Shown piece after piece: positions 142-14,797 of a DNA stretch of 64,000 bases. The stretch's first letter is position 1, and each line of letters starts with the position of its first letter. This DNA is from Gemmatimonadaceae bacterium (GTDB taxonomy: Bacteria; Gemmatimonadota; Gemmatimonadetes; Gemmatimonadales; Gemmatimonadaceae). The stretch covers positions 1-64,000 of the forward strand of contig JADZDM010000031.1 of the NCBI GenBank assembly GCA_020851035.1, in the 5' to 3' direction. Under the pieces are notes generated by a model. That model ran no database searches, had not been told where the DNA came from, and worked only from the letters and a program-made list of their open reading frames with translations. Position numbers and translations under genes: made by a program.

Positions 142-1005
142 TCAGCTGGAGCGAAGCCGCATGAGCCCTTCCTGCGCGACGGACGCAACGAGGGTCCCGT
201 CCTGGGTGTAGATGCTGCCGCGCACGAAGCCGCGCGCACCGGCGGTCACCGGACTGTCCATCGAGTACAGGAGCCACTCGTCCACCCGGAACGGGCGGTG
301 CATCCACACCGAGTGGTCCAGCGAGGCGAGCTGCATGCCCGGCGAGCGGAACGACAGGCCGTGCGGCTGCAGCGCGGTGCCGAGCAATCCGTGGTCCGAG
401 GCGTAGGCCAGCACGGCCTGGTGCATGATTGGCTCGTCGGGCACGGCGCCCAGGGAGCGGAACCAGACGTGCCGCACCGGTGGCCGCGGCCGCGGATCGA
501 ACGGGTCCACCGGATCCACCGGGCGGAAGTCGATCGGCCGTTCCTGCGTGAGCACCGGGCGCAGCGCCTCCGGGATGCGCGACGCGATCTCGCGGATCAG
601 GTCCAGCTCCGTGATGAGCTTGTCCGGCGGCGGCACGGCCGGCATCGGCTCCTGGTGCTCGATCCCGGTCTCCGCCACCTGGAACGATGCCGACAGGTTG
701 AAGATCGCCTGGCCGTGCTGGATGGCCGTCACCCGGCGCGTGGTGAAGCTGTTGCCGTCGCGCAGCCGGTCCACGAAGTAGACGATCGGCGCCTCGAGGT
801 CGCCGGGCAGGATGAAGTAGCCATGCACCGAGTGCGCCTCGCGCGCGCCCTCCACCGTGCGTCGCGCCGCCACCAGTGCCTGCGCGAAGACCTGCCCGCC
901 GAACGCGCGCCCGGTGCCGATGTCGCGATTCTGCCCGCGATAGATGTTGACTTCGAGCGGCTCGAGGTCGAGCAACTCGAGCAGGTCGTCCACGTGGCCG
1001 GACAT
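142..1005 (-). CDS. tesB: Acyl-CoA thioesterase II (TesB-type, double hotdog)
   Basis: 287 aa, the normal length for TesB. It hydrolyses acyl-CoA to free acid and CoA in the cytoplasm. The N-terminal hotdog carries the family pattern R-x-F-GGQVFAQAL (about residues 30-45) and HSVHGYFILPGD. The C-terminal hotdog carries DHSVWMHRPF and an EWLLY segment with the conserved Asp/Gln region near QDGTLVASVAQEG. The ATG at 1005 is chosen because the family N terminus (VDDLLELLDLEPLE) begins right after it; the in-frame extension upstream to 1230 is Arg/Pro-rich and lies in the intergenic gap. A TAGATT box at 1064-1069 could be its own promoter. It follows mcr on the same strand after 166 bp. A role in releasing acyl groups made by the neighbouring CoA-ester pathway is possible but unproven. 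Confidence 0.9.
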   Translation of the reverse strand: MSGHVDDLLELLDLEPLEVNIYRGQNRDIGTGRAFGGQVFAQALVAARRTVEGAREAHSVHGYFILPGDLEAPIVYFVDRLRDGNSFTTRRVTAIQHGQAIFNLSASFQVAETGIEHQEPMPAVPPPDKLITELDLIREIASRIPEALRPVLTQERPIDFRPVDPVDPFDPRPRPPVRHVWFRSLGAVPDEPIMHQAVLAYASDHGLLGTALQPHGLSFRSPGMQLASLDHSVWMHRPFRVDEWLLYSMDSPVTAGARGFVRGSIYTQDGTLVASVAQEGLMRLRSS

Positions 1006-1171: not shown

Positions 1172-4100
1172 TCAGACCGTGATGGCCATGCCGCGATAGA
1201 TCCGCGACCGGTAGCGCGAGTCCTCCGCATCCGGGAGCGGTGCGCCGGCCAGCAGCACGGCCCGCGCGAAGCGCCGCACCTCCTCCAGCGTCTCCTCCTC
1301 GTTGCGCGGCTCCTCGCTCCGCACGCGCCGCGTGAGGTTGATCTGGTTCACCGGCACGTCGTTCACCAGCCGCTCGTTCTCGACCGCCAGCGTGGCCGTG
1401 AGGGCGTGCAGCGTGCTCTTGACGAAGTTCGCCAGCGAGAACACCTCGCCGCCGCCGCCGGCGGGCACGTCGGGCGACACCAGCACCAGCTGCGCGTCGT
1501 CCAGCATCGAGGCCTTGCGGGCCACGCGGAAGTGGTGCGTCAGGTTCACGTCCACCAGCTCCTTGAACGCCGCCGCATCCAGCACCTCGCCGTCGCGCCC
1601 GAACAGCAGGTCGGGCAGCGGCGCGAAGGGCGTCGAGATCACGGTGGTGGGGCGACCGGCCTGCTTCAGCGCCGCGTTCATCCCCGCCTCGATGTCGTCG
1701 CCGCACGGGATCTTCACCAGCACCCGGCGCAGCTCGCGCGGGATGGCGGCCTCGATCGCATCGGCACCGGGCAGCGTGCGCGTCAGCAGCACGATCTTCC
1801 CCACGCTGCAGATCTCCGCCAGCTGCCGTGCGGCCTCCGCCAGGTGCGGCACGAGGTGCTCGCCGATCAGCCACACCGTGCGGCCGCGGAGCTGGTCGAG
1901 CCGCTCCCGCTTCGCGCTGCCGAAGAGCTCGCGCTCGGTGATCGACCGCTCGAGGTTGAGGCCACCCGACGGCATGAAGGTCTCGCCGCTCACGGCGCGA
2001 TCGGCCAGGAAGAACACCGTCGCCAGCGCCACCTCCACCTCGGTCGGCATGCGGCGCAGGTGCAGCAGCGACATCACGCCCTTGTTGACCTTCTCCGCCT
2101 CGCGCTCGATCGAGGACGGCGGCAGGAACGGCAGGTCCTCGGGCGGCAGGCGACGCAGCCACTGCGCGGCCGTCGGCGGCGTCCAGTCGCCGGAATCCAG
2201 GAACAGCCCGCCGAGCGTGAGTCGGGCCAGCAGCCGCTCGGCGATGGACGGCGTCATCAGGTAGTCGCCCCACGTCGCACCGTCGGCCGCCTCGGCACGG
2301 CACTGGTTGGCGAGCTCGCGCAGCTCGTGTGGCACGTCGAGGTCCGTGGTGAGCTGCACCACGTCGTTTGCCGCGAGGTGCTCGAGCGTCGATTCCACGC
2401 GCATCCCGCGCCGCACCGCGCGGATCACCGCCGAGTGTGCGGCGTTGAGGCGCTTGTTCTCGAGGATCAGGCGACCGCGGCGCATGAACAGCCCCGGCTT
2501 GCCGCCCAGGCCGCGGAGTCGGTCACCATCCACCGGGCCCGGTGCGATCGCGTTGATCTGGATCTCCGGGCCCAGGTGGCGCGCCAGCGACTCCACCAGC
2601 GCGCGCTGGCCGGCCTTGCTCACCGCGTAGTCGGCCCGGTTCGGGTACGCCACCGCGAGGTGCTTCTCGCCGCCGAAGTAACTCGACACGTTCAGGATGT
2701 AGCCGCTGCCCTGCTTCCGCATCACCGGCACCACTTCCTTGAGCAGCGCGTAGTTCGACACCAGGTTCGCATCCAGTGTGTAGCGCCACGCGTCGAGCGA
2801 CATGTCCACCACCATCTCCTCGGCGCCGGCGACGCCGGCGTTGTTGATGAGGTAGTCGATCCGCCCGAACGCGGCGAGCGTGCCATCCACCGCGAGGCGC
2901 AGCGTGGCCACGTCCCCCACGTCCACGCCGGCCATGGTGCGCACGCGCCGCTCGGCCCCGCTGTACCCCACGTCCTCCAGCTCGCCCACGATCTGCGCGC
3001 GCATCACCTCGAGCTCGCTCTCGCGGCGCGCCACCAGCATCACCCGGGCGCCCGCCATCGCCAGCAGGCGCGCCACCTGGCCGCCGATGCCGGCCGAGCC
3101 GCCGGTGATCAGCGCCACCTTGCCGAGGTGCAGCCCGGTCAGGTTCTCCATGAAGCCGAGCATCGCGCGCTTGGCGCCGGTCGCCTTCACGATCGACTTC
3201 GGCATGTACAGGTTGACCTGCGGGATGCGCCGGTCGGTGCAGATCAGGCGCGCCGCCTGGCCGGCGGCGAAGCGCCGGTTCTCGGGCTCGTTGTTGCCGT
3301 AGCGGATGATCTGGTTCCCCCACTCGATCCACTGCCGGCGGCCGTGCTTCACGTCCACCTTCGTCTCGTCACGCCACACGCGGGTGAGCGCCTCGAGCGC
3401 GGCGCGCAGCATGTCGGCGTACGAGTTCCACGCCCCGTCGCTGCCGTTCGACATCATCACGAAGCGCGGGTTGCGCGGCAGGTCGGTGCGGCCGCTCCAG
3501 TACCGGCTCAGGGTGCGGGCGAGGGCGACGGCCCCGGTCAGCTCGTGGTCGATGAACTCCTGGATGTCGTCGTCGCCCGCCTCGCAGACCAGTCCCGTGA
3601 AGCGCTCCGGCCCGTACGCGGGCATGATGATCGCCCCGTGCACGGCGCCGCCGCCGGCCGGTCCCTCGGCCAGCGCGCGCTCCATCGTCTCCGGCACCGA
3701 ACGGTCGAAGCGGGCGACGCGGATGCGCGAGTCGAGTCCATTGCCATTGAGCAGCGAGCGGAGGGCCCCCACGTCATCGTCGGTCGGCACGCCCAGCAGC
3801 ACCGCCGCGCCTACCTCCGCCTGCAGGCGCGCCACCGCGAGGCCATCCTCGAGCTGGTCGCCGCAGGCCACCAGCACGGCCAGCCCGCTCCCGTCCACGG
3901 TGCGCATCGTCGGCCGCGACACGAACTCGCTGCGGCTCTCCTTCCGCACCCACATGCCGTGCGTGACCTCGAAGTCGTGCCCGTTGAACGCCGCCGACTC
4001 GTCGCTGCCAAGGAAGACGCAGGTGTTGGCGACGTCCTTCGGCATCGGGAAGGTGCGGCCGGCTGCCGGGTCCTCGCCGGCGCGCTTCAGCGACATCAGT

Positions 4101-4876
4101 CCCGTGAAGGTCGTCGCCGTGGTGCCCGGGTCGTCGCCGCGCATCGTGTCCATGGTCGCGAACACCGACTGGATGCGCTCCGAGCGGATCGGGCCGGGGT
4201 AGACGGTGTTGACGCGGATGCCGCGGTCACCGAGCTCGAACGAGAGCTGCTTCGAGAGGGCGTTCAGCGCCGACTTGGGCACCACGTACGGCGAGCGGGC
4301 GTAGTACTCGGTGCGCGAGAAGATCGTCGAGATGTTGATGATCGACCCGCCCGGCTGCATCACCTTCGCGGCCGCGTTGGCGACGTGCCACGCCACCCCG
4401 AGGATGCTGCGCATGGCATCACCGACCGTCTCGCTGTCGGTGGCCCCCTCGGCCTGCAGTGCTGCGAGTTCCTCGCGCGTGATCGGCACGCGGCGGAGCG
4501 GCTGGCGCGGGCCGGCGGACCCGGCGTTGTTGACGACGATGTCGAGGCGCCCATGCCGCGCGATGGCGGCAGCCATCGCCGTGCGCACCGACGCGGGATC
4601 AGCGCCGTCGAGCGTGACCACCGAGGCCTGCGCGTCCGGCACGCCGGTCGCCTCCACGCACGCCGCCCGCGCCGCCTCCACGCGATCGAGGTCGCGCCCC
4701 GTGAGCACCACCGTGGCCCCTTCGGAGAGGTAGTGGCGGACGATGTGCCCACCGAGGTTCCCGGCGGCGCCGGTCACCAGCGCCACCTTCCCCGCCAGCC
4801 GGCCGGCACGTCCCGTCGCGGCTGTCTCCGCTCCCGTCGCCACCTGTGTCAACGTTCCCCCGTGTAGTGCAGTCAT
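1172..4876 (-). CDS. mcr: Bifunctional malonyl-CoA reductase (NADPH)
   Basis: 1234 aa, against about 1220 in Chloroflexus aurantiacus Mcr. The C-terminal half reduces malonyl-CoA to malonate semialdehyde and the N-terminal half reduces that to 3-hydroxypropionate, using 2 NADPH. Two complete SDR units are visible. The first has TGAAGNLGG at 35-43, NNAG at 116-119 and catalytic Y197-VVP-K201. The second has TGGSAGIGG at 591-599, NNAG at 678-681 and Y750-AVS-K754. Distinctive family stretches are present: NVSSYFGGEKH, QINAIAPGP, QRMPTE-like RRMPTEVEVALATV, and the terminus RGMAITV. The ATG at 4876 overlaps the pcs stop by 4 bp (ATGA), indicating translational coupling; the open frame upstream to 5566 is the antiphase shadow of pcs and is excluded. 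All catalytic motifs I can judge are intact. Ordinary tandem-SDR fusions are unlikely because the match runs the full length, including the linkers. Confidence 0.96.
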   Translation of the reverse strand: MTALHGGTLTQVATGAETAATGRAGRLAGKVALVTGAAGNLGGHIVRHYLSEGATVVLTGRDLDRVEAARAACVEATGVPDAQASVVTLDGADPASVRTAMAAAIARHGRLDIVVNNAGSAGPRQPLRRVPITREELAALQAEGATDSETVGDAMRSILGVAWHVANAAAKVMQPGGSIINISTIFSRTEYYARSPYVVPKSALNALSKQLSFELGDRGIRVNTVYPGPIRSERIQSVFATMDTMRGDDPGTTATTFTGLMSLKRAGEDPAAGRTFPMPKDVANTCVFLGSDESAAFNGHDFEVTHGMWVRKESRSEFVSRPTMRTVDGSGLAVLVACGDQLEDGLAVARLQAEVGAAVLLGVPTDDDVGALRSLLNGNGLDSRIRVARFDRSVPETMERALAEGPAGGGAVHGAIIMPAYGPERFTGLVCEAGDDDIQEFIDHELTGAVALARTLSRYWSGRTDLPRNPRFVMMSNGSDGAWNSYADMLRAALEALTRVWRDETKVDVKHGRRQWIEWGNQIIRYGNNEPENRRFAAGQAARLICTDRRIPQVNLYMPKSIVKATGAKRAMLGFMENLTGLHLGKVALITGGSAGIGGQVARLLAMAGARVMLVARRESELEVMRAQIVGELEDVGYSGAERRVRTMAGVDVGDVATLRLAVDGTLAAFGRIDYLINNAGVAGAEEMVVDMSLDAWRYTLDANLVSNYALLKEVVPVMRKQGSGYILNVSSYFGGEKHLAVAYPNRADYAVSKAGQRALVESLARHLGPEIQINAIAPGPVDGDRLRGLGGKPGLFMRRGRLILENKRLNAAHSAVIRAVRRGMRVESTLEHLAANDVVQLTTDLDVPHELRELANQCRAEAADGATWGDYLMTPSIAERLLARLTLGGLFLDSGDWTPPTAAQWLRRLPPEDLPFLPPSSIEREAEKVNKGVMSLLHLRRMPTEVEVALATVFFLADRAVSGETFMPSGGLNLERSITERELFGSAKRERLDQLRGRTVWLIGEHLVPHLAEAARQLAEICSVGKIVLLTRTLPGADAIEAAIPRELRRVLVKIPCGDDIEAGMNAALKQAGRPTTVISTPFAPLPDLLFGRDGEVLDAAAFKELVDVNLTHHFRVARKASMLDDAQLVLVSPDVPAGGGGEVFSLANFVKSTLHALTATLAVENERLVNDVPVNQINLTRRVRSEEPRNEEETLEEVRRFARAVLLAGAPLPDAEDSRYRSRIYRGMAITV

Positions 4877-7800
4877 GAGTCGTGCTCCGTGGCCGCCCAG
4901 GCCTCGAGCAGGGCATCCTTGCCGCGCAATCCGAGCGCCGGCAGCGCGTGGTTCACCAGGTAGTTCGCGCCGGCGTGGCGATTCTCCCACATCGCCTGGT
5001 GCGCCACCGGCAGCTCGTGCCAGGGCACCACCGTCGGCGGCGTGATCTCCAGGAAGCCGGCCGCGATCATGTCGTTCATGCGCGTCACTTCGTAGGCGTT
5101 CGTGAGGTGCGTGCCGAGGATCGTGGCGGTTGGCATGAGGATCTTCCGCTGCCGCGTCCACACCTGCGGGGCGTAGAACGCGTAGCGCCGGCCCTCCATC
5201 TGCTCGCAATAGACCACGCGGCCGGTGAACGGCTTCACCAGCGAGGTCGACACGCCGAGCGCGTCGTGGCCGGCGCGTTCCATGATCAGGTCCGGCGCCC
5301 CGCGCGGGTTGTCCGGCGAGCGCAGCACCTTGCCCACCGCGGCACCGAAGGGCTTCAGCGTGTTGTCCTGGAAGTCCCGCACCGCCTGGCGGAACACCTC
5401 CGTCTGCACCTTGGCATCCGGCAGGCGCGGCATGCTCTCCGGCCACTCGAAGTCGGAGGTCCGGCGTGACACCTCCTCCAGCGAGACGACACCCGCGATC
5501 GCGTCCTCGAAGCCGAGCGACTGGAGGAACTCCCGCTGGCCATCGGTCGTCGCGGCCACCACACACCGGCCGCGCAGCGCACGCACGGCCTCGATCATCT
5601 CGAGCCCCGTCGCATCCACCAGCTCGGTGGTGCGCGGGCCGTAGTACACCAGCACCGCCTCACCCGCGCGGAGGCCGGCACGGCGCAGCATCATCTCCGG
5701 CGACGCGATGCCGGGCTTGCCCACGAAGGTGAAGTGGTATCCGCTCGACGCGCCGTAGAACGTCAGTGCGCCGCCCTGCTCGAGCAGCTGGAAGCTGCGC
5801 GGGAACGCCGTTTCTCCCGCGTGCGAGACGACGTAGTCGGCGAGGCGCCCGCCGTTCTGCGCACGGAACTCGTCGCACAGTGCCGCGCCGGCCGCCACCC
5901 ACTCCTGCCGCGCCGCCTCGTCCTCCGGCACCACGGTGAAGAGCGACGAGAAGCGCGGGTCGCGCCGGTCCAGCGTGCCATGGGCCCCCAGCGCCCGGAC
6001 CGCCGCCGCCCGCTCCGGGCTCGACACCAGCCCGGTCACCTGCACCCCGCTGCGCAGCGCCGTCTTGAGCGCCTCGAGACCGGTGCCGGTCGCCGACCCT
6101 TCCACGAACATCGTGCGCCCCGGCTCGATCTTCAGCGTGGTGAAGAGCGCGCGGACGATCGTGCCGAGGTTCAGGATGTACGATCCCGCCTGCTCCAGCG
6201 TCAGGTCGCCGGGCACGGGGTGCAGCTGCGGCGCCTGCGTCACGATGAACTGCGAGTGGCTGCCGAAATCGGTCTCGTATCCCTGGATCGAGAAGTCGGC
6301 GTACATCGGGTCGCGCGCCGCCAGGGGCGAGAGCAGGTCGCTCTGCCCGCTGTAGATCGCCACCAGGTCACCGACCTTGAGCCGCCCCTCCGCCTTGGCA
6401 TCACTGCCAAGCGCCGCCACCAGGCCGAGGCCACCGGAGCCGGTGACCTGCACGTCCAGGTCGTGGTTGTCGAAGCTCGACACCGGGATCCCGGTGATCG
6501 CCCAGATGTCGTTGAAGTTCACTTCCGACGCGAGCACGTAGACGAGTGCCTCCATCGCCCCCGGCGTGCCCACGGGCACGATCAGTTCCTGCTCCGCCAC
6601 GGCCGGTGCGCCGAACCGCGGCGCGCCCGTGGCCTGGTCCTTCGGCACGCCGAAGGCGAACTGCCAGGCGGGAATCGGCGTCACGCCGGGATAGAACGGC
6701 GCGCCGACGGGGAGCAGCGCGCCCGCCTCCCGCTGCGCCGCGATGAAGTCGCCCTGCTCGGCCACCAGCCGCACGCCGTCGCGCTTGATCGGCAGGGGCT
6801 GGCTCTGCTTGTCGAGGAACTGGCGGATGCCGGTCTTGCCGCCTTCGGGATCCACCACCCCCTCGGCGAACAGCTCCGCCTCACGCGCCAGGCCTGCATC
6901 CAGCCCGCGCTGCCAGCCGGTGCGCACGGCATCCATCACGCGCGCGCCTGCCGCTTGCCGGCCGGCCCACGCCAGCTGCTGCAGGATGCGCTGCAGGTGC
7001 CCGTCGAGCATCACGACGTCGAGGTCCTCCACGCCCGGCCCGTTCCACTCCGTCACCTGGCGCAGGCGTTCCGTGTGCGCCTGGCCCAGCGCACTCGCGC
7101 GCCCGCTGCGATACCACTCGCGCACCCGCGCGTGCGCCGCCGAGAGCACGTCACCCGAGGCGTCACTCAGCTCGTCCACGAGCCCCATCGCGTGCGCCGC
7201 CTCACCGTCGGCGTTGCGCCCACCGAGCAGCAGCTCGAGCGCGTCGCGCACGCCATCACTGCCCCGGCGCGCCGCCAGCAGTCGCGGCAGCCGCTGCGTG
7301 CCGCCGTACCCCGGCAGCAGCCGGAGCCGGATCTCCGGCTGCCCGAACTGCGAGTAGGGCTCCGCGATGCGGTAGTGGCAGGCGAGGGCGAACTCCATCC
7401 CGCCGCCCAGCGCCACGCCCTGGATCGCCGCGATGCATGGCTTGCCCATGCGCTCGATGCGGCGGAAGGCGAGCTGCGCGTTGTTCGGCAGCACGCGGGC
7501 CTGCTCCAGCGTGTGGATCTCGTCGAGGAACTGGCGGATGTCGGCGCCGGCCACGAACGACGAGGTCCCGTCACCGGTGAACACCACCGCCTTCACGTCG
7601 TCGCGGTGCGCGAGGTGGTCGACGACGATGTTCAGCTCGTCCAGGGCCCGCTCGTTGAGCGCATTCACCGGCGGGTTGGTCACGTACACCGTCGCCACCT
7701 TGGCACCGGCGGCGAGCGTGTTGTACTGCACGCGGAAGTACCGGTAGCGCTCGAACAGCTGCTGCTCGTCGGAGAGCTGCTGGCGGCGCTGCCAGGTGCC

Positions 7801-10404
7801 GATCGCCGCGCGCAGCTCCTCGATCGACTCCGGGTTCCGCAGCGTGCTCACGTCGCCCACGTCCGCCCCTTCCACCAGGGCGCGCACCATGCGCCGCACG
7901 TACTTGCCGCTGCGCGTCTCGGGGAACTGGCGCACCTCGATGAAGTCGCTGGGCACGGCCACGGCCCCCTTCTCGAAGCGCACCAGCTCCGAGAGGCGGC
8001 GCTTGTCGTCCTGCGTCAGCGCGCGCCCTGCGGTGGGCTTCACGAAGGCGAGCGGCGTGAGCCCCTTCTCCCGGTGCGGCGCCCCGACGACGATCACGTT
8101 GCCGACCGGAGAGTCGGGATCGAGCTGCCGGTGGCGCAGGATGGCCCCCTCGATCTCCTCGGTGCCCATGCGGTGCCCCGAGACGTTGATCACGTCGTCG
8201 CTGCGGCCGTGCAGCGAGAACGAGTCGTCGTCGTGGCGGACGGCGAAGTCCCCCTGGGTGTAGGCCCACACGCCCTGCCAGCGCGTCCAGTAGGTGCTCG
8301 TCCAGCGGGCCACGTCTCCCTGCCAGCCGGCCGCCACGCGGTGGCCGTCCACCGTGAAGTGCTCGCTGTCACCCCAGACGGTGCGGGCGAGGTACGGATA
8401 CGGTGCGGCGATGACGATCTCACCCTTCTCCCCGCGCGCCGCGCGCCGGAACGGCACGCCACCCGGCGCCGCGCGAAGGTGTGGCGTCAGCGGGGCCGTC
8501 GGCTCGGCATCACCCGGCGCCGACTCGGTCCAGACGTCGCCCAGGATCCAGGGCAGCGCGTAGGTGTGCGCGTCGGCCCGCAGCGGGAAGTCGCCATTGC
8601 CGTAGAAATGTGTCCAGGCGATGCCGCCGTGTTCCGTGGCCCAGTACGAGTTGATGTACCACGGCGCCAGCAGCTCCATCCCGAACTGCTGCACCACCGG
8701 CGACACCGGCTCGGCGCAGAAGGTGCAGACGCGGAGCGTGGACGTGTCGTACCGGCGCACGTCGGCCGCGTTCTGGTGGTCCTGCATGATCCCCTTCAGG
8801 AACGTCGCACCGGCCTTGAAGATGCTGACCTTGTGCCGTTCGATGATCGAGGCGAACCGCCCCGCGTGCGGGAACACCGGCGCCCCCTCGGTGAACACGC
8901 TCGTCACGCGCGTGGTGAGGGCGGCCGAGATCATGTAGCTCTGGCCGGTGATCCACCCCGGGTCGGCCACCACGTACATCACGTCGCCGGCCGTCGCATC
9001 GAACGCCACCCGCATGCTGTGCGCGATGCCGGCGGTGTACCCGCCGTGCACGTGCACCACGCCCTTCGGCTTGCCGGTGGAGCCCGAGGTGTAGATGAAG
9101 AAGAGCGGGAACTCGGCGTCGAGCGGGGCGGGCGCACTGGCGGCCCAGATCGCCCGCACGAAGTCGCGATCCGGCAGCGCGAGCAGTGCCGTCTCGTCGG
9201 CCACGTCGATGCCGGCCTCCCGCGCCGCCGCCAGGATCACGCCCAGCGCCGCGTCGGTCAGCTCGTGGCTCCAGCGGTCGCGTTCCCCGCGCCACACGAT
9301 GTCCTCGATGCCGCTGTGGCGCACCACCACCACCGTGTCCACCCGCGGCGGTGTCGAGACCAGGGCCGCCGCGATCGCGGTGCGCACCCGGCTCGCGTCG
9401 CTCGCATTCAGCTCGTGCGCATCCGACAGCGACTGCAGCGCGCGGCCCACGCCGCGCATCACGTCGCTGCGCTGCACCGTGATCTCGCCGGCCAGCGTCT
9501 CGTCGATCGTGGCCAGCACCGTGGCCACCTGCGCCGCCGGCAGTGCCAGCGTCGCCAGCGTCGCCGACACCACCGCCCGCGCCGACGCCATCGGCACGTA
9601 GTCGTCCAGCGCCGGGTCGGTGTACGCCGTCTTGAACGGCACGATCTGCGCATTGCGATAGCCGCCGTCGGCGGTGATCACCACCCGCGCGCCGGCATCG
9701 TGGATGCGGTCACTCAGCGTCTTGTCGCTGAAGCCGCCGAACACCGGCGTGTACACCACGCCGATGCGCTTCGCCCCCTCGGTCCAGTAGAGCTGCGCCG
9801 GGATGTTCGGCATGTTCAGCGCGATGCGGTCACCGCGCCGGAGGCCGAGGGCCAGCAGCGCGATCGAGCACTTCGCGGACTCCAGCAGCAGGCTGCGGCG
9901 CGAGACGGGGTAGCACTCCAGCGGCCCGCCGCGCCCGCCATCGAGCGACATGTCCCAGCGGTCGCCCTCGAAGATCAGCGCGGCCTCGTCGCCGTGGCCC
10001 GCGAGGACGTGCCGGTCCACCTCGTTGAAGCCGGCGTTGGTCAGGCCGCCGTCGAACCAGGTGAAGTACGGTGCGGCGTCGGCGTTGAATGCGCGCGACC
10101 AGGGTGCGTACCCCGCGGGCAGGGCCGGCGTGATCGGTGCGCCGGATTCCGCATCGAAGCCCGTCCAGGCGGTCGCGGCGTCGTCCCACGTGATCCAGCC
10201 GCCGCGAGCCCCCAGCGACGGATTGAACCAGTGCAGCTCTCGCTGCGCGATCGCGCCGTGGAACCCTCCCGGGTCTGCCAGGCACTCCGCCCGCATGCGG
10301 TCCCAGTCGGCGCGTGTGCGGATGGGATTGCAGCGCGCCACCGGAGGTGACACGGGACGAGGCCCCGTCGCATCGACGAGGAACGGGTCGGTCGTTACGG
10401 CCAT
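4873..10404 (-). CDS. pcs: Trifunctional propionyl-CoA synthase (3-hydroxypropionate to propionyl-CoA)
   Basis: 1843 aa, against about 1822 in Chloroflexus Pcs. It converts 3-hydroxypropionate, CoA, ATP and NADPH to propionyl-CoA in one polypeptide. Module 1 is an acetate-CoA ligase type synthetase: FNEVDRHV near 126, YTSGSTGKPKG at 438-448, GRSDDVINVSGHR near 733, and the C-terminal catalytic lysine in RSGK at 834. Module 2 is an enoyl-CoA hydratase: AGADI at 952-956, GGGME at 1000-1004, LLPGYGGTQRLP near 1029. Module 3, from about 1300, is an MDR/crotonyl-CoA-reductase-like acrylyl-CoA reductase with EVNFNDIWAITGIPVS, VGDLVAIYSGQSD and SGYHFTFVGKPG. The ATG at 10404 is preceded by GGAG with an 8-nt spacer and starts the family N terminus (NPIRTRADWDRMRAE). 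It is first in a pcs-mcr operon with a 4-bp overlap. Confidence 0.97.
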   Translation of the reverse strand: MAVTTDPFLVDATGPRPVSPPVARCNPIRTRADWDRMRAECLADPGGFHGAIAQRELHWFNPSLGARGGWITWDDAATAWTGFDAESGAPITPALPAGYAPWSRAFNADAAPYFTWFDGGLTNAGFNEVDRHVLAGHGDEAALIFEGDRWDMSLDGGRGGPLECYPVSRRSLLLESAKCSIALLALGLRRGDRIALNMPNIPAQLYWTEGAKRIGVVYTPVFGGFSDKTLSDRIHDAGARVVITADGGYRNAQIVPFKTAYTDPALDDYVPMASARAVVSATLATLALPAAQVATVLATIDETLAGEITVQRSDVMRGVGRALQSLSDAHELNASDASRVRTAIAAALVSTPPRVDTVVVVRHSGIEDIVWRGERDRWSHELTDAALGVILAAAREAGIDVADETALLALPDRDFVRAIWAASAPAPLDAEFPLFFIYTSGSTGKPKGVVHVHGGYTAGIAHSMRVAFDATAGDVMYVVADPGWITGQSYMISAALTTRVTSVFTEGAPVFPHAGRFASIIERHKVSIFKAGATFLKGIMQDHQNAADVRRYDTSTLRVCTFCAEPVSPVVQQFGMELLAPWYINSYWATEHGGIAWTHFYGNGDFPLRADAHTYALPWILGDVWTESAPGDAEPTAPLTPHLRAAPGGVPFRRAARGEKGEIVIAAPYPYLARTVWGDSEHFTVDGHRVAAGWQGDVARWTSTYWTRWQGVWAYTQGDFAVRHDDDSFSLHGRSDDVINVSGHRMGTEEIEGAILRHRQLDPDSPVGNVIVVGAPHREKGLTPLAFVKPTAGRALTQDDKRRLSELVRFEKGAVAVPSDFIEVRQFPETRSGKYVRRMVRALVEGADVGDVSTLRNPESIEELRAAIGTWQRRQQLSDEQQLFERYRYFRVQYNTLAAGAKVATVYVTNPPVNALNERALDELNIVVDHLAHRDDVKAVVFTGDGTSSFVAGADIRQFLDEIHTLEQARVLPNNAQLAFRRIERMGKPCIAAIQGVALGGGMEFALACHYRIAEPYSQFGQPEIRLRLLPGYGGTQRLPRLLAARRGSDGVRDALELLLGGRNADGEAAHAMGLVDELSDASGDVLSAAHARVREWYRSGRASALGQAHTERLRQVTEWNGPGVEDLDVVMLDGHLQRILQQLAWAGRQAAGARVMDAVRTGWQRGLDAGLAREAELFAEGVVDPEGGKTGIRQFLDKQSQPLPIKRDGVRLVAEQGDFIAAQREAGALLPVGAPFYPGVTPIPAWQFAFGVPKDQATGAPRFGAPAVAEQELIVPVGTPGAMEALVYVLASEVNFNDIWAITGIPVSSFDNHDLDVQVTGSGGLGLVAALGSDAKAEGRLKVGDLVAIYSGQSDLLSPLAARDPMYADFSIQGYETDFGSHSQFIVTQAPQLHPVPGDLTLEQAGSYILNLGTIVRALFTTLKIEPGRTMFVEGSATGTGLEALKTALRSGVQVTGLVSSPERAAAVRALGAHGTLDRRDPRFSSLFTVVPEDEAARQEWVAAGAALCDEFRAQNGGRLADYVVSHAGETAFPRSFQLLEQGGALTFYGASSGYHFTFVGKPGIASPEMMLRRAGLRAGEAVLVYYGPRTTELVDATGLEMIEAVRALRGRCVVAATTDGQREFLQSLGFEDAIAGVVSLEEVSRRTSDFEWPESMPRLPDAKVQTEVFRQAVRDFQDNTLKPFGAAVGKVLRSPDNPRGAPDLIMERAGHDALGVSTSLVKPFTGRVVYCEQMEGRRYAFYAPQVWTRQRKILMPTATILGTHLTNAYEVTRMNDMIAAGFLEITPPTVVPWHELPVAHQAMWENRHAGANYLVNHALPALGLRGKDALLEAWAATEHDS

Positions 10405-10548
10405 GCCGGCTACTCCGGGCGTTGGCAAAAGGTGTCTGGCACACGAACGTGCAGGCCGGCTACCCCGGCAGGCACGCCGAAATGAAGCCGGGGGGCCGAC
10501 GTGCTGGCAAGGACGATGATACGCGCCAGCCGTTTCTCCGTGAGCGGC

Positions 10549-10560
10549 GTAACCGGTTAC
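10549..10560. promoter_or_regulatory. Perfect 12-bp palindrome between pcs and pxpB, LacI-operator-like
   Basis: GTAACCGGTTAC is a perfect palindrome in the 265-bp divergent gap (10405-10669) between pcs and pxpB. A central CG flanked by AAC/GTT is the typical LacI/GntR-type operator shape. No regulator gene lies within the window near it. The rest of the gap shows no clear sigma-70 boxes. Confidence 0.4.
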
Positions 10561-10669
10561 CCCGACACAGGTGTCCGGCATCGACCCACACGCGGCGCGG
10601 CGCATCCGCGCGACGGCATGATGTCGTTGCAACCGCACCAGCACCGCCAGTGCACGGCGTGCCCGCCCG

Positions 10670-11398
10670 ATGGCGGCGCCCCCGTACCCCGTACATGTTG
10701 TCCGGACAGTGCCCCAGACCTCCGTGATTCCGCTTGGTGACCGCGCGCTGACCCTCGAGGTGCCCGAGGCGGATGGCGCAGCGTCGCGTGACCTCATCCG
10801 GTGCCTCCAGGCACAGCTCCGGTGTGACGCGCCCGCCGCGGTGACGGCCCTCGTGCCCGCCATCCGCACGCTCACCGTGCACTACGATCCCATGCGCATC
10901 ACGTTCGGTGCGCTCCGCGACTACCTCGCGGCCACGGTCGATGCACTCGTCGTCACCGCCGAGCCGCCGCGCCAGCCGGTGATCATCCCCGTCTGCTACG
11001 GCGGCGAATTCGGCCCCGACCTCGACCAGCTCGCCAGTCTGCACGGCACCAGCGCCGACGGGATCGTGGCCACGCACACGGCGGGCGCGTACATCGTCGC
11101 CATGGTCGGCTTCCTCCCGGGCTTCCCGTACCTCGAGGGACTCGACCCCTCGCTGCACACGCCGCGCCGCGCCGAGCCGCGGACTGCGGTGCCGGCCGGC
11201 AGCGTCGGCATCGGCGGCAGCAACACCGGGATCTATCCCTTCAGCTCCCCTGGCGGCTGGCACCTCATCGGGCGCACGCCGCGCACGCTGTTCGCGGCCA
11301 CCCGCGACGCGCCGTCGCTGCTGCTGGCCGGTGATCACGTGCGCTTCACCGCCATCACGCCGACAGCCTTCCGCGAGCAGCGCGAGCGTCCCGCGTGA
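10670..11398 (+). CDS. pxpB: 5-oxoprolinase subunit PxpB (KipI-like)
   Basis: Up to 242 aa. It is part of the ATP-dependent prokaryotic 5-oxoprolinase PxpABC, which opens 5-oxoproline to glutamate in the cytoplasm. The allophanate-hydrolase subunit 1 fold is shown by IPLGDRALTLEV near the N terminus, VCYGGEFGPDLDQLA, MVGFLPGFPYLEGLD, and the AGSVGIGGSNTGIYPFSSPGGW block. The family N terminus begins at VIPLGDRAL, so GTG at 10709 or 10724 may be the real start rather than the ATG at 10670. It overlaps pxpC by 4 bp (GTGA). Confidence 0.93.
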   Translation: MAAPPYPVHVVRTVPQTSVIPLGDRALTLEVPEADGAASRDLIRCLQAQLRCDAPAAVTALVPAIRTLTVHYDPMRITFGALRDYLAATVDALVVTAEPPRQPVIIPVCYGGEFGPDLDQLASLHGTSADGIVATHTAGAYIVAMVGFLPGFPYLEGLDPSLHTPRRAEPRTAVPAGSVGIGGSNTGIYPFSSPGGWHLIGRTPRTLFAATRDAPSLLLAGDHVRFTAITPTAFREQRERPA

Positions 11399-12384
11399 CG
11401 GTGCATGTGCGGCAGCCCGGCCTGCTCACCACCGTCCAGGATCTCGGGCGCATGGGGTGGCAGCACATCGGCGTGCCGGTGGGAGGGGCGATGGATCCCG
11501 TCGCGCACCGCGTCGCGAACCTGCTCGTCGGCAATGACGACGATGCGGCGGCACTCGAGTGCACGCTCGGTGGGATCGCGCTGCAGTTCACCGCACCCAC
11601 GCTGGTGGCGCTCGCCGGCCGCGACATCACCGCCTCGCTCGATGCGACCCCGATTCCCGGCTGGCGCCCCTTCCTCGCTCCCCGCGGCGCGCTGCTGGTG
11701 CTGCACGATGGATGCCGGACGACGATCGCATTCGCCGGCGGCGTGGATGTGCCGCAGGTGCTCGACGGCCGCGGCACGTCGCTGCGCGCCGCGTTCGGCG
11801 GGCTGGCGGGACGCCCCCTCCGCCGCGACGACCGCCTCGCCCTGAGCCCACCGACGGCACTCGGCGCCCGCATCGCCGCGCAACTCGATGCCCGCAGCCG
11901 CGTGGTCGCCAACTGGAGCGCCGGCATGAGCATCCGCCCTGCATACACTGACACGCCCACGCTGCGGATCATTCCCGGTCCGGAGCACGGCCTGCTCACC
12001 GACGCGTCGCGCGACCTGCTGCTCGGCGACACCTTTCGGGTCTCCCCCGACTCCGACCGCATGGGATTCCGGCTCACCGGGCAGCCGCTCGCCCTCACCT
12101 CCGCAAGCGAGATGCTCTCCTCCGGCGTCACCGCCGGCACGATCCAGCTGCCCCCCGGTGGGGCACCGATCGTGCTCATGGCCGACCGGCAGACCACCGG
12201 GGGCTATCCGCGCATCGGCGACGTGATCACCGTCGACCTGCCCCTCCTCGCGCAGTTGCGGCCCGGTGATGACCTGCGCTTCGCACCGGTGTCCCTCGAC
12301 GCCGCGCAGTCGCTCTACCGGTCCCGCGAGCACAACATCTCCGGTGCCCGTGCCGCCATGCGGCACAGGTTCCTCGAGGCCTGA
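11395..12384 (+). CDS. pxpC: 5-oxoprolinase subunit PxpC (KipA-like, biotin-dependent carboxyltransferase family fold)
   Basis: 329 aa starting at GTG, overlapping the pxpB stop by 4 bp. The allophanate hydrolase subunit 2 family is recognised from GLLTTVQDLGRMGWQHIGVPVGGAMD at the N terminus, ANLLVGNDDDAAALE, the LRIIPGPEH centre, SDRMGFRLTG, and PPGGAPIVLMADRQTTGGYPRIG near 260-285. It works with PxpA and PxpB; the three genes run with almost no gaps in the order B-C-A. Urea-amidolyase function is unlikely because no biotin carboxylase or AtzF partner is present. Confidence 0.94.
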   Translation: MTVHVRQPGLLTTVQDLGRMGWQHIGVPVGGAMDPVAHRVANLLVGNDDDAAALECTLGGIALQFTAPTLVALAGRDITASLDATPIPGWRPFLAPRGALLVLHDGCRTTIAFAGGVDVPQVLDGRGTSLRAAFGGLAGRPLRRDDRLALSPPTALGARIAAQLDARSRVVANWSAGMSIRPAYTDTPTLRIIPGPEHGLLTDASRDLLLGDTFRVSPDSDRMGFRLTGQPLALTSASEMLSSGVTAGTIQLPPGGAPIVLMADRQTTGGYPRIGDVITVDLPLLAQLRPGDDLRFAPVSLDAAQSLYRSREHNISGARAAMRHRFLEA

Positions 12385-12385
12385 C

Positions 12386-13159
12386 ATGACACACGTGGAC
12401 CTGAACTGCGACATGGGCGAGAGCATCGGCCCCTGGCCGATGGGCAACGATGCCGCCGTGCTGCCCTGCGTGACATCCATCAGCGTGGCCTGCGGCTTCC
12501 ACGCCGGTGACCCCTCGGTGATGCGCGCCACCGTGACCGCCGCCGCCGCCCACGGCGTGGCGATCGGTGCCCACCCCGGGCTCCCCGACCTCGCCGGCTT
12601 CGGGCGCCGCGACATGGCCATCAGCCTGCAGGAGGCGTACGACCACACGGCCTACCAGCTCGGGGCGCTCCAGGCGATCTGCACCACCGCCGGCACGCAG
12701 GTGCGCCACGTCAAGCCGCATGGGGCGCTCTACAACATGGCGGCGGTGCGCGAGGACCTCGCCGATGCCATCGCCCGCGCGGTGCGCGACGTGGATCCGT
12801 CGCTCGCGCTCTTCGGCCTCTCGGGCAGTGCGCTCATCGATGCCGGCACGCACTGCAGCCTGCGAGTGGTGAGCGAGGTGTTCGCCGACCGCCACTACCA
12901 GCCCGACGGCACGCTCGTGCCGCGCTCGCACCCGCAGGCGCTCGTGACCGACGTCGACCTGGCCACCGAGCGCGCCCTGCGCATGGTGCAGCACCGCTCG
13001 ATCGTGGCCATCGACGGCAGCCACGTGCCCGTCACCCCCGACACGATCTGCATCCACGGCGACGGACGCAGCGCCCAGCAGTTCGCCCTCCGCATCCGCG
13101 CCGCCCTGCACGCGGCGGGCATCGACGTGCGCGCACCGCACGCCGCACGCCACGCCTGA
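12386..13159 (+). CDS. pxpA: 5-oxoprolinase subunit PxpA (LamB/YcsF family)
   Basis: 257 aa, the normal family length. It belongs to the LamB/YcsF TIM-barrel-like family, which acts with PxpBC in ATP-dependent 5-oxoproline cleavage. Diagnostic motifs are DLNCDMGES at residues 5-13, SVACGFHAGDP, GAHPGLPDLAGFGRR, HVKPHGALYN, EVFADRHYQPDGTLVPR and ICIHGD. The ATG is one base after the pxpC stop, so the gene is co-translated. It is followed after 10 bp by the DUF969 membrane gene. Confidence 0.95.
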   Translation: MTHVDLNCDMGESIGPWPMGNDAAVLPCVTSISVACGFHAGDPSVMRATVTAAAAHGVAIGAHPGLPDLAGFGRRDMAISLQEAYDHTAYQLGALQAICTTAGTQVRHVKPHGALYNMAAVREDLADAIARAVRDVDPSLALFGLSGSALIDAGTHCSLRVVSEVFADRHYQPDGTLVPRSHPQALVTDVDLATERALRMVQHRSIVAIDGSHVPVTPDTICIHGDGRSAQQFALRIRAALHAAGIDVRAPHAARHA

Positions 13160-13169
13160 CCACCGGACC

Positions 13170-13844
13170 ATGCTCGTCCTCAGCGGACTGCTCGTCGTCG
13201 TCCTCGGCTTCGCCCTGCGCGTCAACCCGCTGCTGGTGGTGACGGTCGCCGGCCTGGTCACCGGCATCGCCGGCGGCCTCGGCGCGCTGCGCACCCTCGG
13301 CACGCTCGGACATGCCTTCACCGAAAGCCGCTACGTCGCCATCGTCTGGCTGGTGCTCCCCATCATCGGCCTGCTGGAGCGCGCGGGACTCAAGGAGCGC
13401 GCCCGCGACGTCGTCATGCGCATGCAGGGTGCCACCGCCGGCCGCGTGCTGCTGGCCTACCTGGCCCTGCGCCAGGCCACCGCCGCCCTCGGCCTCGTCT
13501 CCCTCGGTGGTCATCCGCAGATGGTCCGGCCCCTCATCGCGCCGATGGCGGAAGGTGCCGCCGAGCGCGACGTCCCCGATCTCGACCTGGCCACCCGTCA
13601 GGAGATCCGCGCCCACGCTGCCGCCGTCGACAATGTCGGCGTCTTCTTCGGCGAGGACATCTTCATCGCCATCGGCTCCATCCTGCTCATCAAGGGCGTG
13701 ATGGAGCAGGCGGGCATCCGGGTGCTGCCCACCGAGCTGGCCGTCTGGGCAATTCCCACCGCGATCGCGGCCTTCGTGATCCACGGTGCGCGACTCCTGC
13801 TGCTCGACCGCCGCCTCGCCGCGCGCCGCGGTCGCCGCACGTGA
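13170..13844 (+). CDS. DUF969 membrane protein, probable 5-oxoproline (pyroglutamate) uptake partner
   Basis: 224 aa with about six hydrophobic helices, beginning with two strong ones (LVLSGLLVVVLGFALRVNPLLVV). The segment ESRYVAIVWLVLPIIGLLERAGLKERA and the VDNVGVFFGEDIFIAIGSILLIKGV block are typical of DUF969 proteins, which are encoded next to DUF979 partners in many bacteria. Its stop overlaps the DUF979 start (GTGA), so the two are probably subunits of one permease. Because it follows pxpBCA directly, transport of 5-oxoproline is the natural inference; the substrate is not shown by the sequence. Confidence 0.85.
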   Translation: MLVLSGLLVVVLGFALRVNPLLVVTVAGLVTGIAGGLGALRTLGTLGHAFTESRYVAIVWLVLPIIGLLERAGLKERARDVVMRMQGATAGRVLLAYLALRQATAALGLVSLGGHPQMVRPLIAPMAEGAAERDVPDLDLATRQEIRAHAAAVDNVGVFFGEDIFIAIGSILLIKGVMEQAGIRVLPTELAVWAIPTAIAAFVIHGARLLLLDRRLAARRGRRT

Positions 13845-14797
13845 TCACCCTCGAGTTCCTCTACCGGCTGATGGGCCTCCTCACGGGCGCCACCGCCGTC
13901 ATCAACTTCCGCGACCGCACCAACCCCAATCGGCGCGCGAACGCCGCCTTCTGGGGGCTGTGGAGCCTCTCGTTCCTGTTCGGCACCTGGCTGCCGGACC
14001 TGGCGAACGGGGTGCTCATCCTCGCGATGGTGGCCGTCGCGAGCCTGCGCGGCGTGAAGTCGGGCGGTGCCGAGGGCTCGACGCTGGCGGAGCGCACGGC
14101 CAGCGCGCGGACGTGGGGCAACCGGCTGTTCCTGCCCGCACTCGCCGTGCCGGCACTCACCCTGCTCGCCAATGCCACCATCGGCCACATCACCATCGGT
14201 GGCGCACCGCTGGTGGACGCGAAGCAGGTCACGCTCGTGTCGCTCGGCGTGGCCACCATCCTCTCGCTTGCCTTCGGCCTGGTGATGCTCCGGCCGCCGC
14301 TCGCCGCTCCACTCTCCGAGGCCCGGCGGCTGCTCGACGCGGTGGGCTGGGCGGCGATGCTGCCGCAGCTCCTGGCCGCCCTCGGCGCCGTCTTCGCCGC
14401 CGCCGGTGTCGGGAAGGTCGTCTCGACCCTCGCCGCCAGCGCCATCCCCGGCGGCGCCCCGCTGCTCCCGGTGGTGGCCTATACCGTGGGGATGGCCCTC
14501 CTCACGATGCTCATGGGTAACGCGTTCGCCGCCTTCCCCGTCATGACACTCGGCATCGCGCTTCCGCTGCTCGTGACGCAGCTTCATGGTGATCCCACCA
14601 TCATCGCCGCCATCGGCATGCTCTCCGGCTTCTGCGGCACGCTCATGACGCCCATGGCGGCGAACTTCAACCTCGTGCCGGTGGCCCTGCTGGAGCTGCC
14701 TGACCGCTACGCCGTGATCCGCGTCCAGGTCCCCACCGCCCTGCTGCTGCTCACCGTCAACACCCTGCTGCTGTACTTCCTGGCCTTTCCGCACTGA
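13841..14797 (+). CDS. DUF979 membrane protein, partner of the DUF969 protein
   Basis: 318 aa starting at GTG in a 4-bp overlap with the upstream gene. It has about nine hydrophobic segments. Family-like features are FLYRLMGLLTGATAVINFRDRTNP at the start, AALGAVFAAAGVGKVVS in the centre, GNAFAAFPVMTLGIALPLLV, and FCGTLMTPMAANFNLVPVALLEL near the end. DUF979 always pairs with DUF969 and often lies beside pyroglutamyl peptidase or 5-oxoprolinase genes, so a two-component carrier for 5-oxoproline or a related compound is inferred. Confidence 0.85.
   Translation: MITLEFLYRLMGLLTGATAVINFRDRTNPNRRANAAFWGLWSLSFLFGTWLPDLANGVLILAMVAVASLRGVKSGGAEGSTLAERTASARTWGNRLFLPALAVPALTLLANATIGHITIGGAPLVDAKQVTLVSLGVATILSLAFGLVMLRPPLAAPLSEARRLLDAVGWAAMLPQLLAALGAVFAAAGVGKVVSTLAASAIPGGAPLLPVVAYTVGMALLTMLMGNAFAAFPVMTLGIALPLLVTQLHGDPTIIAAIGMLSGFCGTLMTPMAANFNLVPVALLELPDRYAVIRVQVPTALLLLTVNTLLLYFLAFPH

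What the first reader, a model, noticed from the sequence alone, without database searches (positions are those of the whole stretch)
1172..10404. mcr-pcs operon: the 3-hydroxypropionate branch of carbon assimilation in a probable Gemmatimonadota chromosome
Seen: two giant genes, 4-bp overlap, with full-length correspondence to Mcr (two SDR units, Y197/K201 and Y750/K754) and Pcs (synthetase, hydratase and reductase modules, all catalytic motifs intact). Known: in Chloroflexus these two enzymes form the diagnostic part of the 3-hydroxypropionate bi-cycle, and homologues have been reported in a few aerobic anoxygenic phototrophic proteobacteria. Inference: the host can turn malonyl-CoA (acetyl-CoA plus CO2) into propionyl-CoA, or assimilate 3-hydroxypropionate, probably mixotrophically. 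Whether the full cycle exists cannot be judged from the window; mcl, mct and meh are not here. I am not aware of a description in this phylum.
Basis: partly seen in the sequence, partly recalled or inferred. Interest (0 to 1): 0.92.

Follow-up and report, generated by a model that had tools for sequence, protein, structure and literature searches.

The report
CO2-fixing cycle in a photosynthetic Gemmatimonad
Two giant enzyme genes that are the hallmark of an unusual CO2-fixing cycle sit in a Gemmatimonadota genome that also carries the rest of that cycle's special genes and a full set of photosynthesis genes but no Rubisco, so these bacteria, usually called light-assisted heterotrophs, may be able to build biomass from CO2 using light.

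Summary
In detail: pcs (10404-4873, minus) and mcr (4876-1172, minus) overlap by ATGA, are full length and keep their catalytic motifs. "mcl, mct and meh are not here" holds only for the window. Elsewhere in the same genome lie meh / smtA-smtB-mct-mcl-mch, methylmalonyl-CoA mutase, acetyl- and propionyl-CoA carboxylase genes, a bacteriochlorophyll-puf-puh photosynthesis cluster and a Huc-type uptake hydrogenase. No RuBisCO, isocitrate lyase or crotonyl-CoA carboxylase/reductase was found. A single-contig genome of the same family carries the same special genes and puf, so binning error is not the cause. Mcr occurs in 16 of 395 sampled Gemmatimonadota genomes; 13 of those have pufLM (44 of 395 overall). 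Mcr and Pcs trees put this genus with Burkholderiaceae and Sphingomonadales, apart from other Gemmatimonadaceae. The complete bi-cycle was already reported in two Gemmatimonadales MAGs (PMC9802188), so the pathway is not new to the phylum. Its combination with phototrophy there is what I found no description of in the library searched; phototrophic members were said to lack carbon-fixation genes (PMC8547001). Autotrophy itself is inferred, not shown.

The parts
4873..10404 (-). pcs, propionyl-CoA synthase (1843 aa): 3-HP-CoA ligase, 3-HP-CoA dehydratase and acryloyl-CoA reductase modules
   Evidence: full-length match to 6eqo, 2695 bits; AMP-binding, ECH_1, ADH_zinc_N domains; motifs
1172..4876 (-). 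mcr, bifunctional malonyl-CoA reductase (1234 aa), two SDR units, YxxxK at 197 and 750
   Evidence: full-length match to 8hi4 and 8hjw; motifs
4873..4876 (-). ATGA stop/start overlap joining pcs to mcr (translational coupling, inferred)
   Evidence: sequence
142..1005 (-). tesB-type acyl-CoA thioesterase directly downstream; possible operon member, role not known
   Evidence: Pfam Acyl_CoA_thio and 4HBT_3; same place and 82% identity in the two own-genus MAGs

Best explanation
The operon encodes the CO2-fixing front half of a complete 3-hydroxypropionate bi-cycle in an anoxygenic phototrophic member of Gemmatimonadaceae. Acetyl-CoA carboxylase makes malonyl-CoA; Mcr reduces it with NADPH to 3-hydroxypropionate; Pcs converts that with ATP, CoA and NADPH to propionyl-CoA; propionyl-CoA carboxylase, methylmalonyl-CoA mutase and TCA enzymes carry it to malate; SmtAB and Mcl give glyoxylate and acetyl-CoA; and Mcl, Mch, Mct and Meh turn glyoxylate plus propionyl-CoA into pyruvate and acetyl-CoA. 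Shown here: presence and integrity of the special genes, and a photosynthesis gene cluster in the same genome. Inferred: that the enzymes are active and that light (and possibly H2) powers net CO2 assimilation. Most likely use is photomixotrophy: CO2 co-assimilation with acetate, glycolate, propionate or 3-hydroxypropionate, with the bi-cycle also standing in for the glyoxylate shunt; strict photoautotrophy is possible but unproven.
For: Mcr and Pcs full length and intact. On contig C2: smtA, smtB, mct (TIGR04253, 691 bits; 654 and 647 bits to solved isomerases 7xkg and 8apq), mcl (661 and 658 bits to 4l7z and 6kin), mch, and a divergent meh related to itaconyl-CoA hydratase 8khg. The same gene set is contiguous with pcs-mcr in another Gemmatimonadota genome (G319) and in Burkholderiaceae MAGs. 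Mutase alpha and B12 subunits, MeaB, carboxyltransferases, biotin carboxylase and carrier protein are present. pufLM, puhA, bchB/L/H/M/X/Y/Z/I/P/F are present. RuBisCO and isocitrate lyase absent, no ccr besides the Pcs domain. Huc-type hydrogenase. Single-contig relative G074 has pcs-mcr, the meh-smtAB-mct-mcl-mch cluster and puf. Mcr and puf co-occur in 13 of 16 Mcr genomes versus 31 of 379 others.
Against: No expression, enzyme or growth data. SmtA, SmtB, Mch and Meh are assigned by family and synteny, not by equivalog cut-offs; Mct scores just under its curated cut-off (691 versus 725). The epimerase, succinate dehydrogenase and fumarase were not searched. Three Mcr-bearing relatives lack puf and four lack the Mct gene, so in part of the phylum Mcr-Pcs is kept without phototrophy or without the second cycle. 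Porphyrobacter with Mcr-Pcs enzymes, and by comparison Erythrobacter NAP1, is considered unlikely to grow autotrophically (PMC10674011).
Confidence: 0.78

Rival explanations
1. Heterotrophic assimilation only: Mcr-Pcs and the glyoxylate-assimilation genes serve to assimilate acetate, 3-hydroxypropionate, propionate, glycolate or similar, without net autotrophy, as proposed for AAP Alphaproteobacteria and for Kentron's partial bi-cycle. (This overlaps with the mixotrophic form of the best explanation, so the two confidences do not add to one.)
For: AAPs considered non-autotrophic carry Mcr-Pcs enzymes; a partial bi-cycle is proposed for organic substrates in Kentron; this genome lacks isocitrate lyase and crotonyl-CoA carboxylase/reductase, so it needs some acetate route; some relatives have Mcr-Pcs without Mct.
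Against: Unlike those AAPs, this genome has the special genes of both cycles, which 3-HP assimilation alone would not need; a light-driven energy source and an uptake hydrogenase are present.
Confidence: 0.45
2. Binning artefact: the C2 or photosynthesis contigs are contaminants from a proteobacterium.
For: These genes have proteobacterial relatives, and the host genome is a 34-contig draft.
Against: A single-contig 5.18 Mb relative of the same family has pcs-mcr, the meh-smtAB-mct-mcl-mch cluster and puf on one chromosome; both other own-genus genomes repeat the pattern; GC is 0.70-0.71 on all contigs sampled.
Confidence: 0.03
3. The two genes are unrelated SDR and acyl-CoA synthetase fusions (polyketide or fatty-acid type).
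For: Generic SDR and ACS family models also match.
Against: Full-length colinear matches to solved Mcr and Pcs far above any other structure, the operon order shared with known Mcr-Pcs carriers, and the second-cycle genes in the genome.
Confidence: 0.01

Closest known systems
3-hydroxypropionate bi-cycle of Chloroflexus aurantiacus (Fuchs pathway)
   Same: Same special enzymes for both cycles: Mcr, Pcs, SmtAB, Mcl, Mch, Mct, Meh; phototrophy with a type II reaction centre.
   Different: Among fetched sequences Mcr and Pcs are closest to proteobacterial enzymes; pcs-mcr form one operon (separate loci in C. aurantiacus, from own knowledge); the photosynthesis genes form a puf-bch cluster of the proteobacterial kind.
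3HP bi-cycle in two Gemmatimonadales MAGs (PMC9802188, PNAS Nexus 2022)
   Same: Same phylum and order, all bi-cycle genes, similar arrangement of glyoxylate-assimilation genes.
   Different: That paper tied it to inorganic electron donors and mentions photosynthesis for the Burkholderiales with the cycle; here it is paired with a photosynthesis gene cluster and absence of RuBisCO.
Burkholderiaceae with pcs-mcr-meh-smtAB-mct-mcl-mch (L077, L102; same family as bi-cycle MAGs in PMC9802188)
   Same: Same genes at 64-83% identity; nearest Mcr and Pcs relatives outside the phylum.
   Different: All in one cluster there; split over two contigs (C31, C2) in this genome.
AAP Alphaproteobacteria with pcs-mcr (Novosphingobium, Sandarakinorhabdus and others; Erythrobacter NAP1)
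   Same: pcs-mcr order and about 60-70% identity.
   Different: Of the alphaproteobacterial loci fetched only Rhodopila L108 showed mct, mcl and mch near pcs-mcr; the others show none within the flanks held (up to 10 kb).
Photoheterotrophic Gemmatimonadota (Gemmatimonas phototrophica, lake MAGs, PMC8547001)
   Same: Phylum and puf/bch cluster.
   Different: Those were reported to have no genes for carbon fixation; the passages found describe a search for RuBisCO.

Membership tests
Bifunctional malonyl-CoA reductase (Mcr) | two fused SDR-type halves, about 1220 aa, each with YxxxK | tested here: met
Bifunctional malonyl-CoA reductase (Mcr) | malonyl-CoA and malonate-semialdehyde reduction with NADPH | not testable with these tools
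   needs purified protein
Propionyl-CoA synthase (Pcs) | ACS, crotonase and medium-chain reductase modules in one chain of about 1840 aa with catalytic motifs | tested here: met
3-hydroxypropionate bi-cycle | mcr and pcs present | tested here: met
3-hydroxypropionate bi-cycle | mesaconyl-CoA isomerase Mct | tested here: met
   C2:216597-217796, 691 bits to TIGR04253 (cut-off 725), 654 bits to 7xkg
3-hydroxypropionate bi-cycle | trifunctional malyl-CoA lyase Mcl | tested here: met
   661 bits, full length, to 4l7z; other malyl-CoA lyases score 202 or less
3-hydroxypropionate bi-cycle | SmtAB, Mch, Meh | tested here: inconclusive
   right families in a conserved cluster; substrate specificity not resolved by sequence
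3-hydroxypropionate bi-cycle | acetyl- and propionyl-CoA carboxylase, methylmalonyl-CoA mutase | tested here: met
3-hydroxypropionate bi-cycle | methylmalonyl-CoA epimerase, succinate dehydrogenase, fumarase | not tested
3-hydroxypropionate bi-cycle | autotrophic operation | not testable with these tools
   needs labelling or growth
Anoxygenic phototroph with type II reaction centre | pufL, pufM, puhA and bch genes | tested here: met
Calvin cycle autotroph | RuBisCO large subunit | tested here: not met
   no match in G000

The most novel reading that the evidence does not exclude
A lineage of Gemmatimonadaceae that is (facultatively) photoautotrophic through the 3-hydroxypropionate bi-cycle without RuBisCO: a Chloroflexus-like way of life assembled in another phylum from transferred photosynthesis and carbon-fixation modules, with mcr-pcs having entered the phylum at least twice.
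Probability: 0.4. Interest if true: 0.82.

Novelty: new member of a known kind. Interest (0 to 1): 0.62.

Why it matters
Phototrophic Gemmatimonadota are mostly treated as photoheterotrophs, on surveys that looked for RuBisCO. If a RuBisCO-free bi-cycle runs in some of them, the list of photoautotrophic lineages and the carbon budget attributed to them change. It also shows that photosynthesis genes and the bi-cycle tend to occur together in this phylum, and gives complete gene sets, one in a single-contig genome, on which the prediction can be tested directly.

Tried and rejected
Curated NCBI families gave only generic SDR and ACS matches for Mcr and Pcs. An ORF first taken for meh (L072 6942-8030, plus) has no family match; the likely meh is the minus-strand ORF 7940-7089. 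The SoxB search gave only matches far below the cut-off, so Sox thiosulfate oxidation is not supported. The ccr search rang on the Pcs reductase domain and generic dehydrogenases only. The Mct+Mcl tree joins two long rows (Rhodopila, G288), so nothing is drawn from its deep branches. Paper searches for phototrophic Gemmatimonadota with the bi-cycle found none, but most subscription papers and all preprints are outside that library. Structure prediction was not used, since solved homologues already cover the proteins.

Full report
Check of the observation. The two ORFs are present as described. pcs runs 10404-4873 and mcr 4876-1172 on the minus strand; the pcs stop and the mcr start share ATGA. 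Mcr (1234 aa) aligns over its length to solved malonyl-CoA reductases (8hi4, 1169 bits; 8hjw, 1111 bits), and Pcs (1843 aa) to the solved propionyl-CoA synthase 6eqo (2695 bits, residues 29-1842). That 6eqo is the Erythrobacter NAP1 enzyme, that 8hi4 is from Roseiflexus and 6k8s from Porphyrobacter, and that 4l7z is from Chloroflexus is my own knowledge; the tool prints only molecule names.

The rest of the cycle. The window is contig C31:1-64000 of a 4.97 Mb, 34-contig genome, 95.7% complete. Contig C2 holds a cluster (L072 = C2:206000-225900): meh on the minus strand (7940-7089), then smtA, smtB, mct, mcl and mch on the plus strand (8027-13967). Mct scores 691 bits against the mesaconyl-CoA isomerase model (curated cut-off 725) and 654 and 647 bits against the solved proteins 7xkg and 8apq. 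Mcl scores 661 bits against 4l7z and 658 against 6kin, far above malyl-CoA lyases of other types (202 bits for 4l9y). The meh product matches itaconyl-CoA hydratase 8khg at 225 bits, a related reaction; its assignment rests on family and place. smtA and smtB are CaiB-family CoA-transferases assigned the same way. Methylmalonyl-CoA mutase (alpha and B12 subunits, with MeaB), two propionyl-CoA-carboxylase-type carboxyltransferases, a biotin carboxylase, a biotin carrier protein, accA and accD are present. I did not search for the epimerase, succinate dehydrogenase or fumarase.

Gene order elsewhere. In G319 (same order) one 17.7 kb contig carries meh / smtA-smtB-mct-mcl-mch-pcs-mcr, with mcr cut by the contig end. 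Two Burkholderiaceae MAGs (L077, L102) carry pcs-mcr / meh / smtA-smtB-mct-mcl-mch, and a Longimicrobiales MAG (L115; G288 has the same contig) carries mcr, pcs, meh, smtAB and mct together. In the single-contig relative G074 (5.18 Mb, same family) pcs-mcr lie at about 1.21-1.22 Mb and meh-smtAB-mct-mcl-mch at about 1.57 Mb of one chromosome that also has pufLM and no RuBisCO. This makes a binning artefact a poor explanation of the combination.

Phototrophy and energy. The genome has pufL and pufM in a cluster on contig C25 with bchB, bchH, bchL, bchM, bchX, bchY, bchZ, bchI, bchP, bchF and puhA. It has a NiFe hydrogenase whose large subunit matches the Huc (group 2a) enzyme at 889 bits; group 2a enzymes are linked to atmospheric H2 oxidation in Gemmatimonas aurantiaca and Chloroflexus aggregans (PMC7784904). 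No RuBisCO-family protein was found, no isocitrate lyase, no ccr other than the reductase domain of Pcs, and no SoxB above cut-off. Lack of both acetate-assimilation routes tested makes a role of the bi-cycle in acetate assimilation likely as well (inference).

Distribution. Mcr at E below 1e-100 occurs in 16 of 395 Gemmatimonadota genomes (9 of 138 genera). pufLM occurs in 44 of 395 (14 of 138 genera). Thirteen of the 16 Mcr genomes have puf, against 31 of the other 379 (Fisher p = 3e-11; by genus 8 of 9 against 6 of 129, p = 1e-8). Genomes are related, so these p values overstate the evidence. Twelve of the 16 have a Mct gene: ten at 654-710 bits, G288 cut by a contig end, G144 in fragments; the four without are G150, G331, G336 and G352. 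Eleven genomes therefore have Mcr, Mct and puf together. Phototrophy without Mcr is common (31 genomes).

Descent. A tree of 87 Mcr proteins and one of 36 place the window's genus (3 genomes) in a fully supported group with Burkholderiaceae and Sphingomonadales; nine other Gemmatimonadota form a second clade, and the Longimicrobiales sequences fall with Halieaceae and Myxococcota at about 45% identity to the window's. Forcing the window's genus and the second clade together is rejected (91 log-likelihood units, AU p = 9e-69; the group was chosen by taxonomy). The Pcs tree agrees for this genus. So the gene pair moved into or out of the phylum more than once; direction is not proven. Mct+Mcl also join this genus to Burkholderiaceae and G319, in a tree with long-branch warnings.

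What is known. All genes of the bi-cycle were reported in two Gemmatimonadales MAGs (PMC9802188), with autotrophy tied to inorganic electron donors; photosynthesis was mentioned for the Burkholderiales. A 2026 glacier study notes mcr in one Gemmatimonadota MAG (PMC13184969). The lake survey of phototrophic Gemmatimonadota states that none had genes for carbon fixation (PMC8547001), and the passages found in the phylum-wide survey discuss RuBisCO and not the bi-cycle (PMC10581226). Photoautotrophy in the phylum has been proposed for soda-lake MAGs with RuBisCO (PMC8779627). I found no paper joining phototrophy and the bi-cycle in this phylum in the library searched.

Verdict. It is a new occurrence of a known pathway in a phylum where it was already seen. 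The added result is that the pathway's special genes are all present in a RuBisCO-free phototrophic lineage, which makes photoautotrophy or CO2 co-assimilation in Gemmatimonadota directly testable. Function in the cell is inferred.

Noticed in passing
window 142-1005 (-): A TesB-type acyl-CoA thioesterase follows mcr and keeps that place in both own-genus MAGs (82% identity).
   Followed up: partly
window 10670-14797 (+): 5-oxoprolinase-type genes (pxpB, pxpC, pxpA) and DUF969/DUF979 genes are divergent from pcs; pxpBCA and DUF969 have the same neighbourhood in L075.
   Followed up: partly
L176 (own genome C23:184000-203900), 8624-11311 (+): Huc-type group 2a NiFe hydrogenase genes (large subunit 889 bits to 7utd), with ORFs downstream that look like hypC and hypD.
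   Followed up: partly
G150 (L012, L071, L158, L179): A more distant relative has mcr-pcs, puf and a strong RuBisCO large subunit (452 bits) but no Mct, so two carbon-fixation modules coexist in part.
   Followed up: no
G352 C328 (L016, L017): mcr is interrupted by an in-frame TAG: possibly a decaying copy or an assembly error.
   Followed up: no
G123, G331, G352: Three Mcr-bearing genomes lack pufLM, so Mcr-Pcs is also kept without phototrophy, or puf is missing from the drafts.
   Followed up: no
L110 10001-15068: The Lysobacteraceae mcr match spans about 5 kb, longer than the gene, suggesting an insertion or a duplicated part.
   Followed up: no
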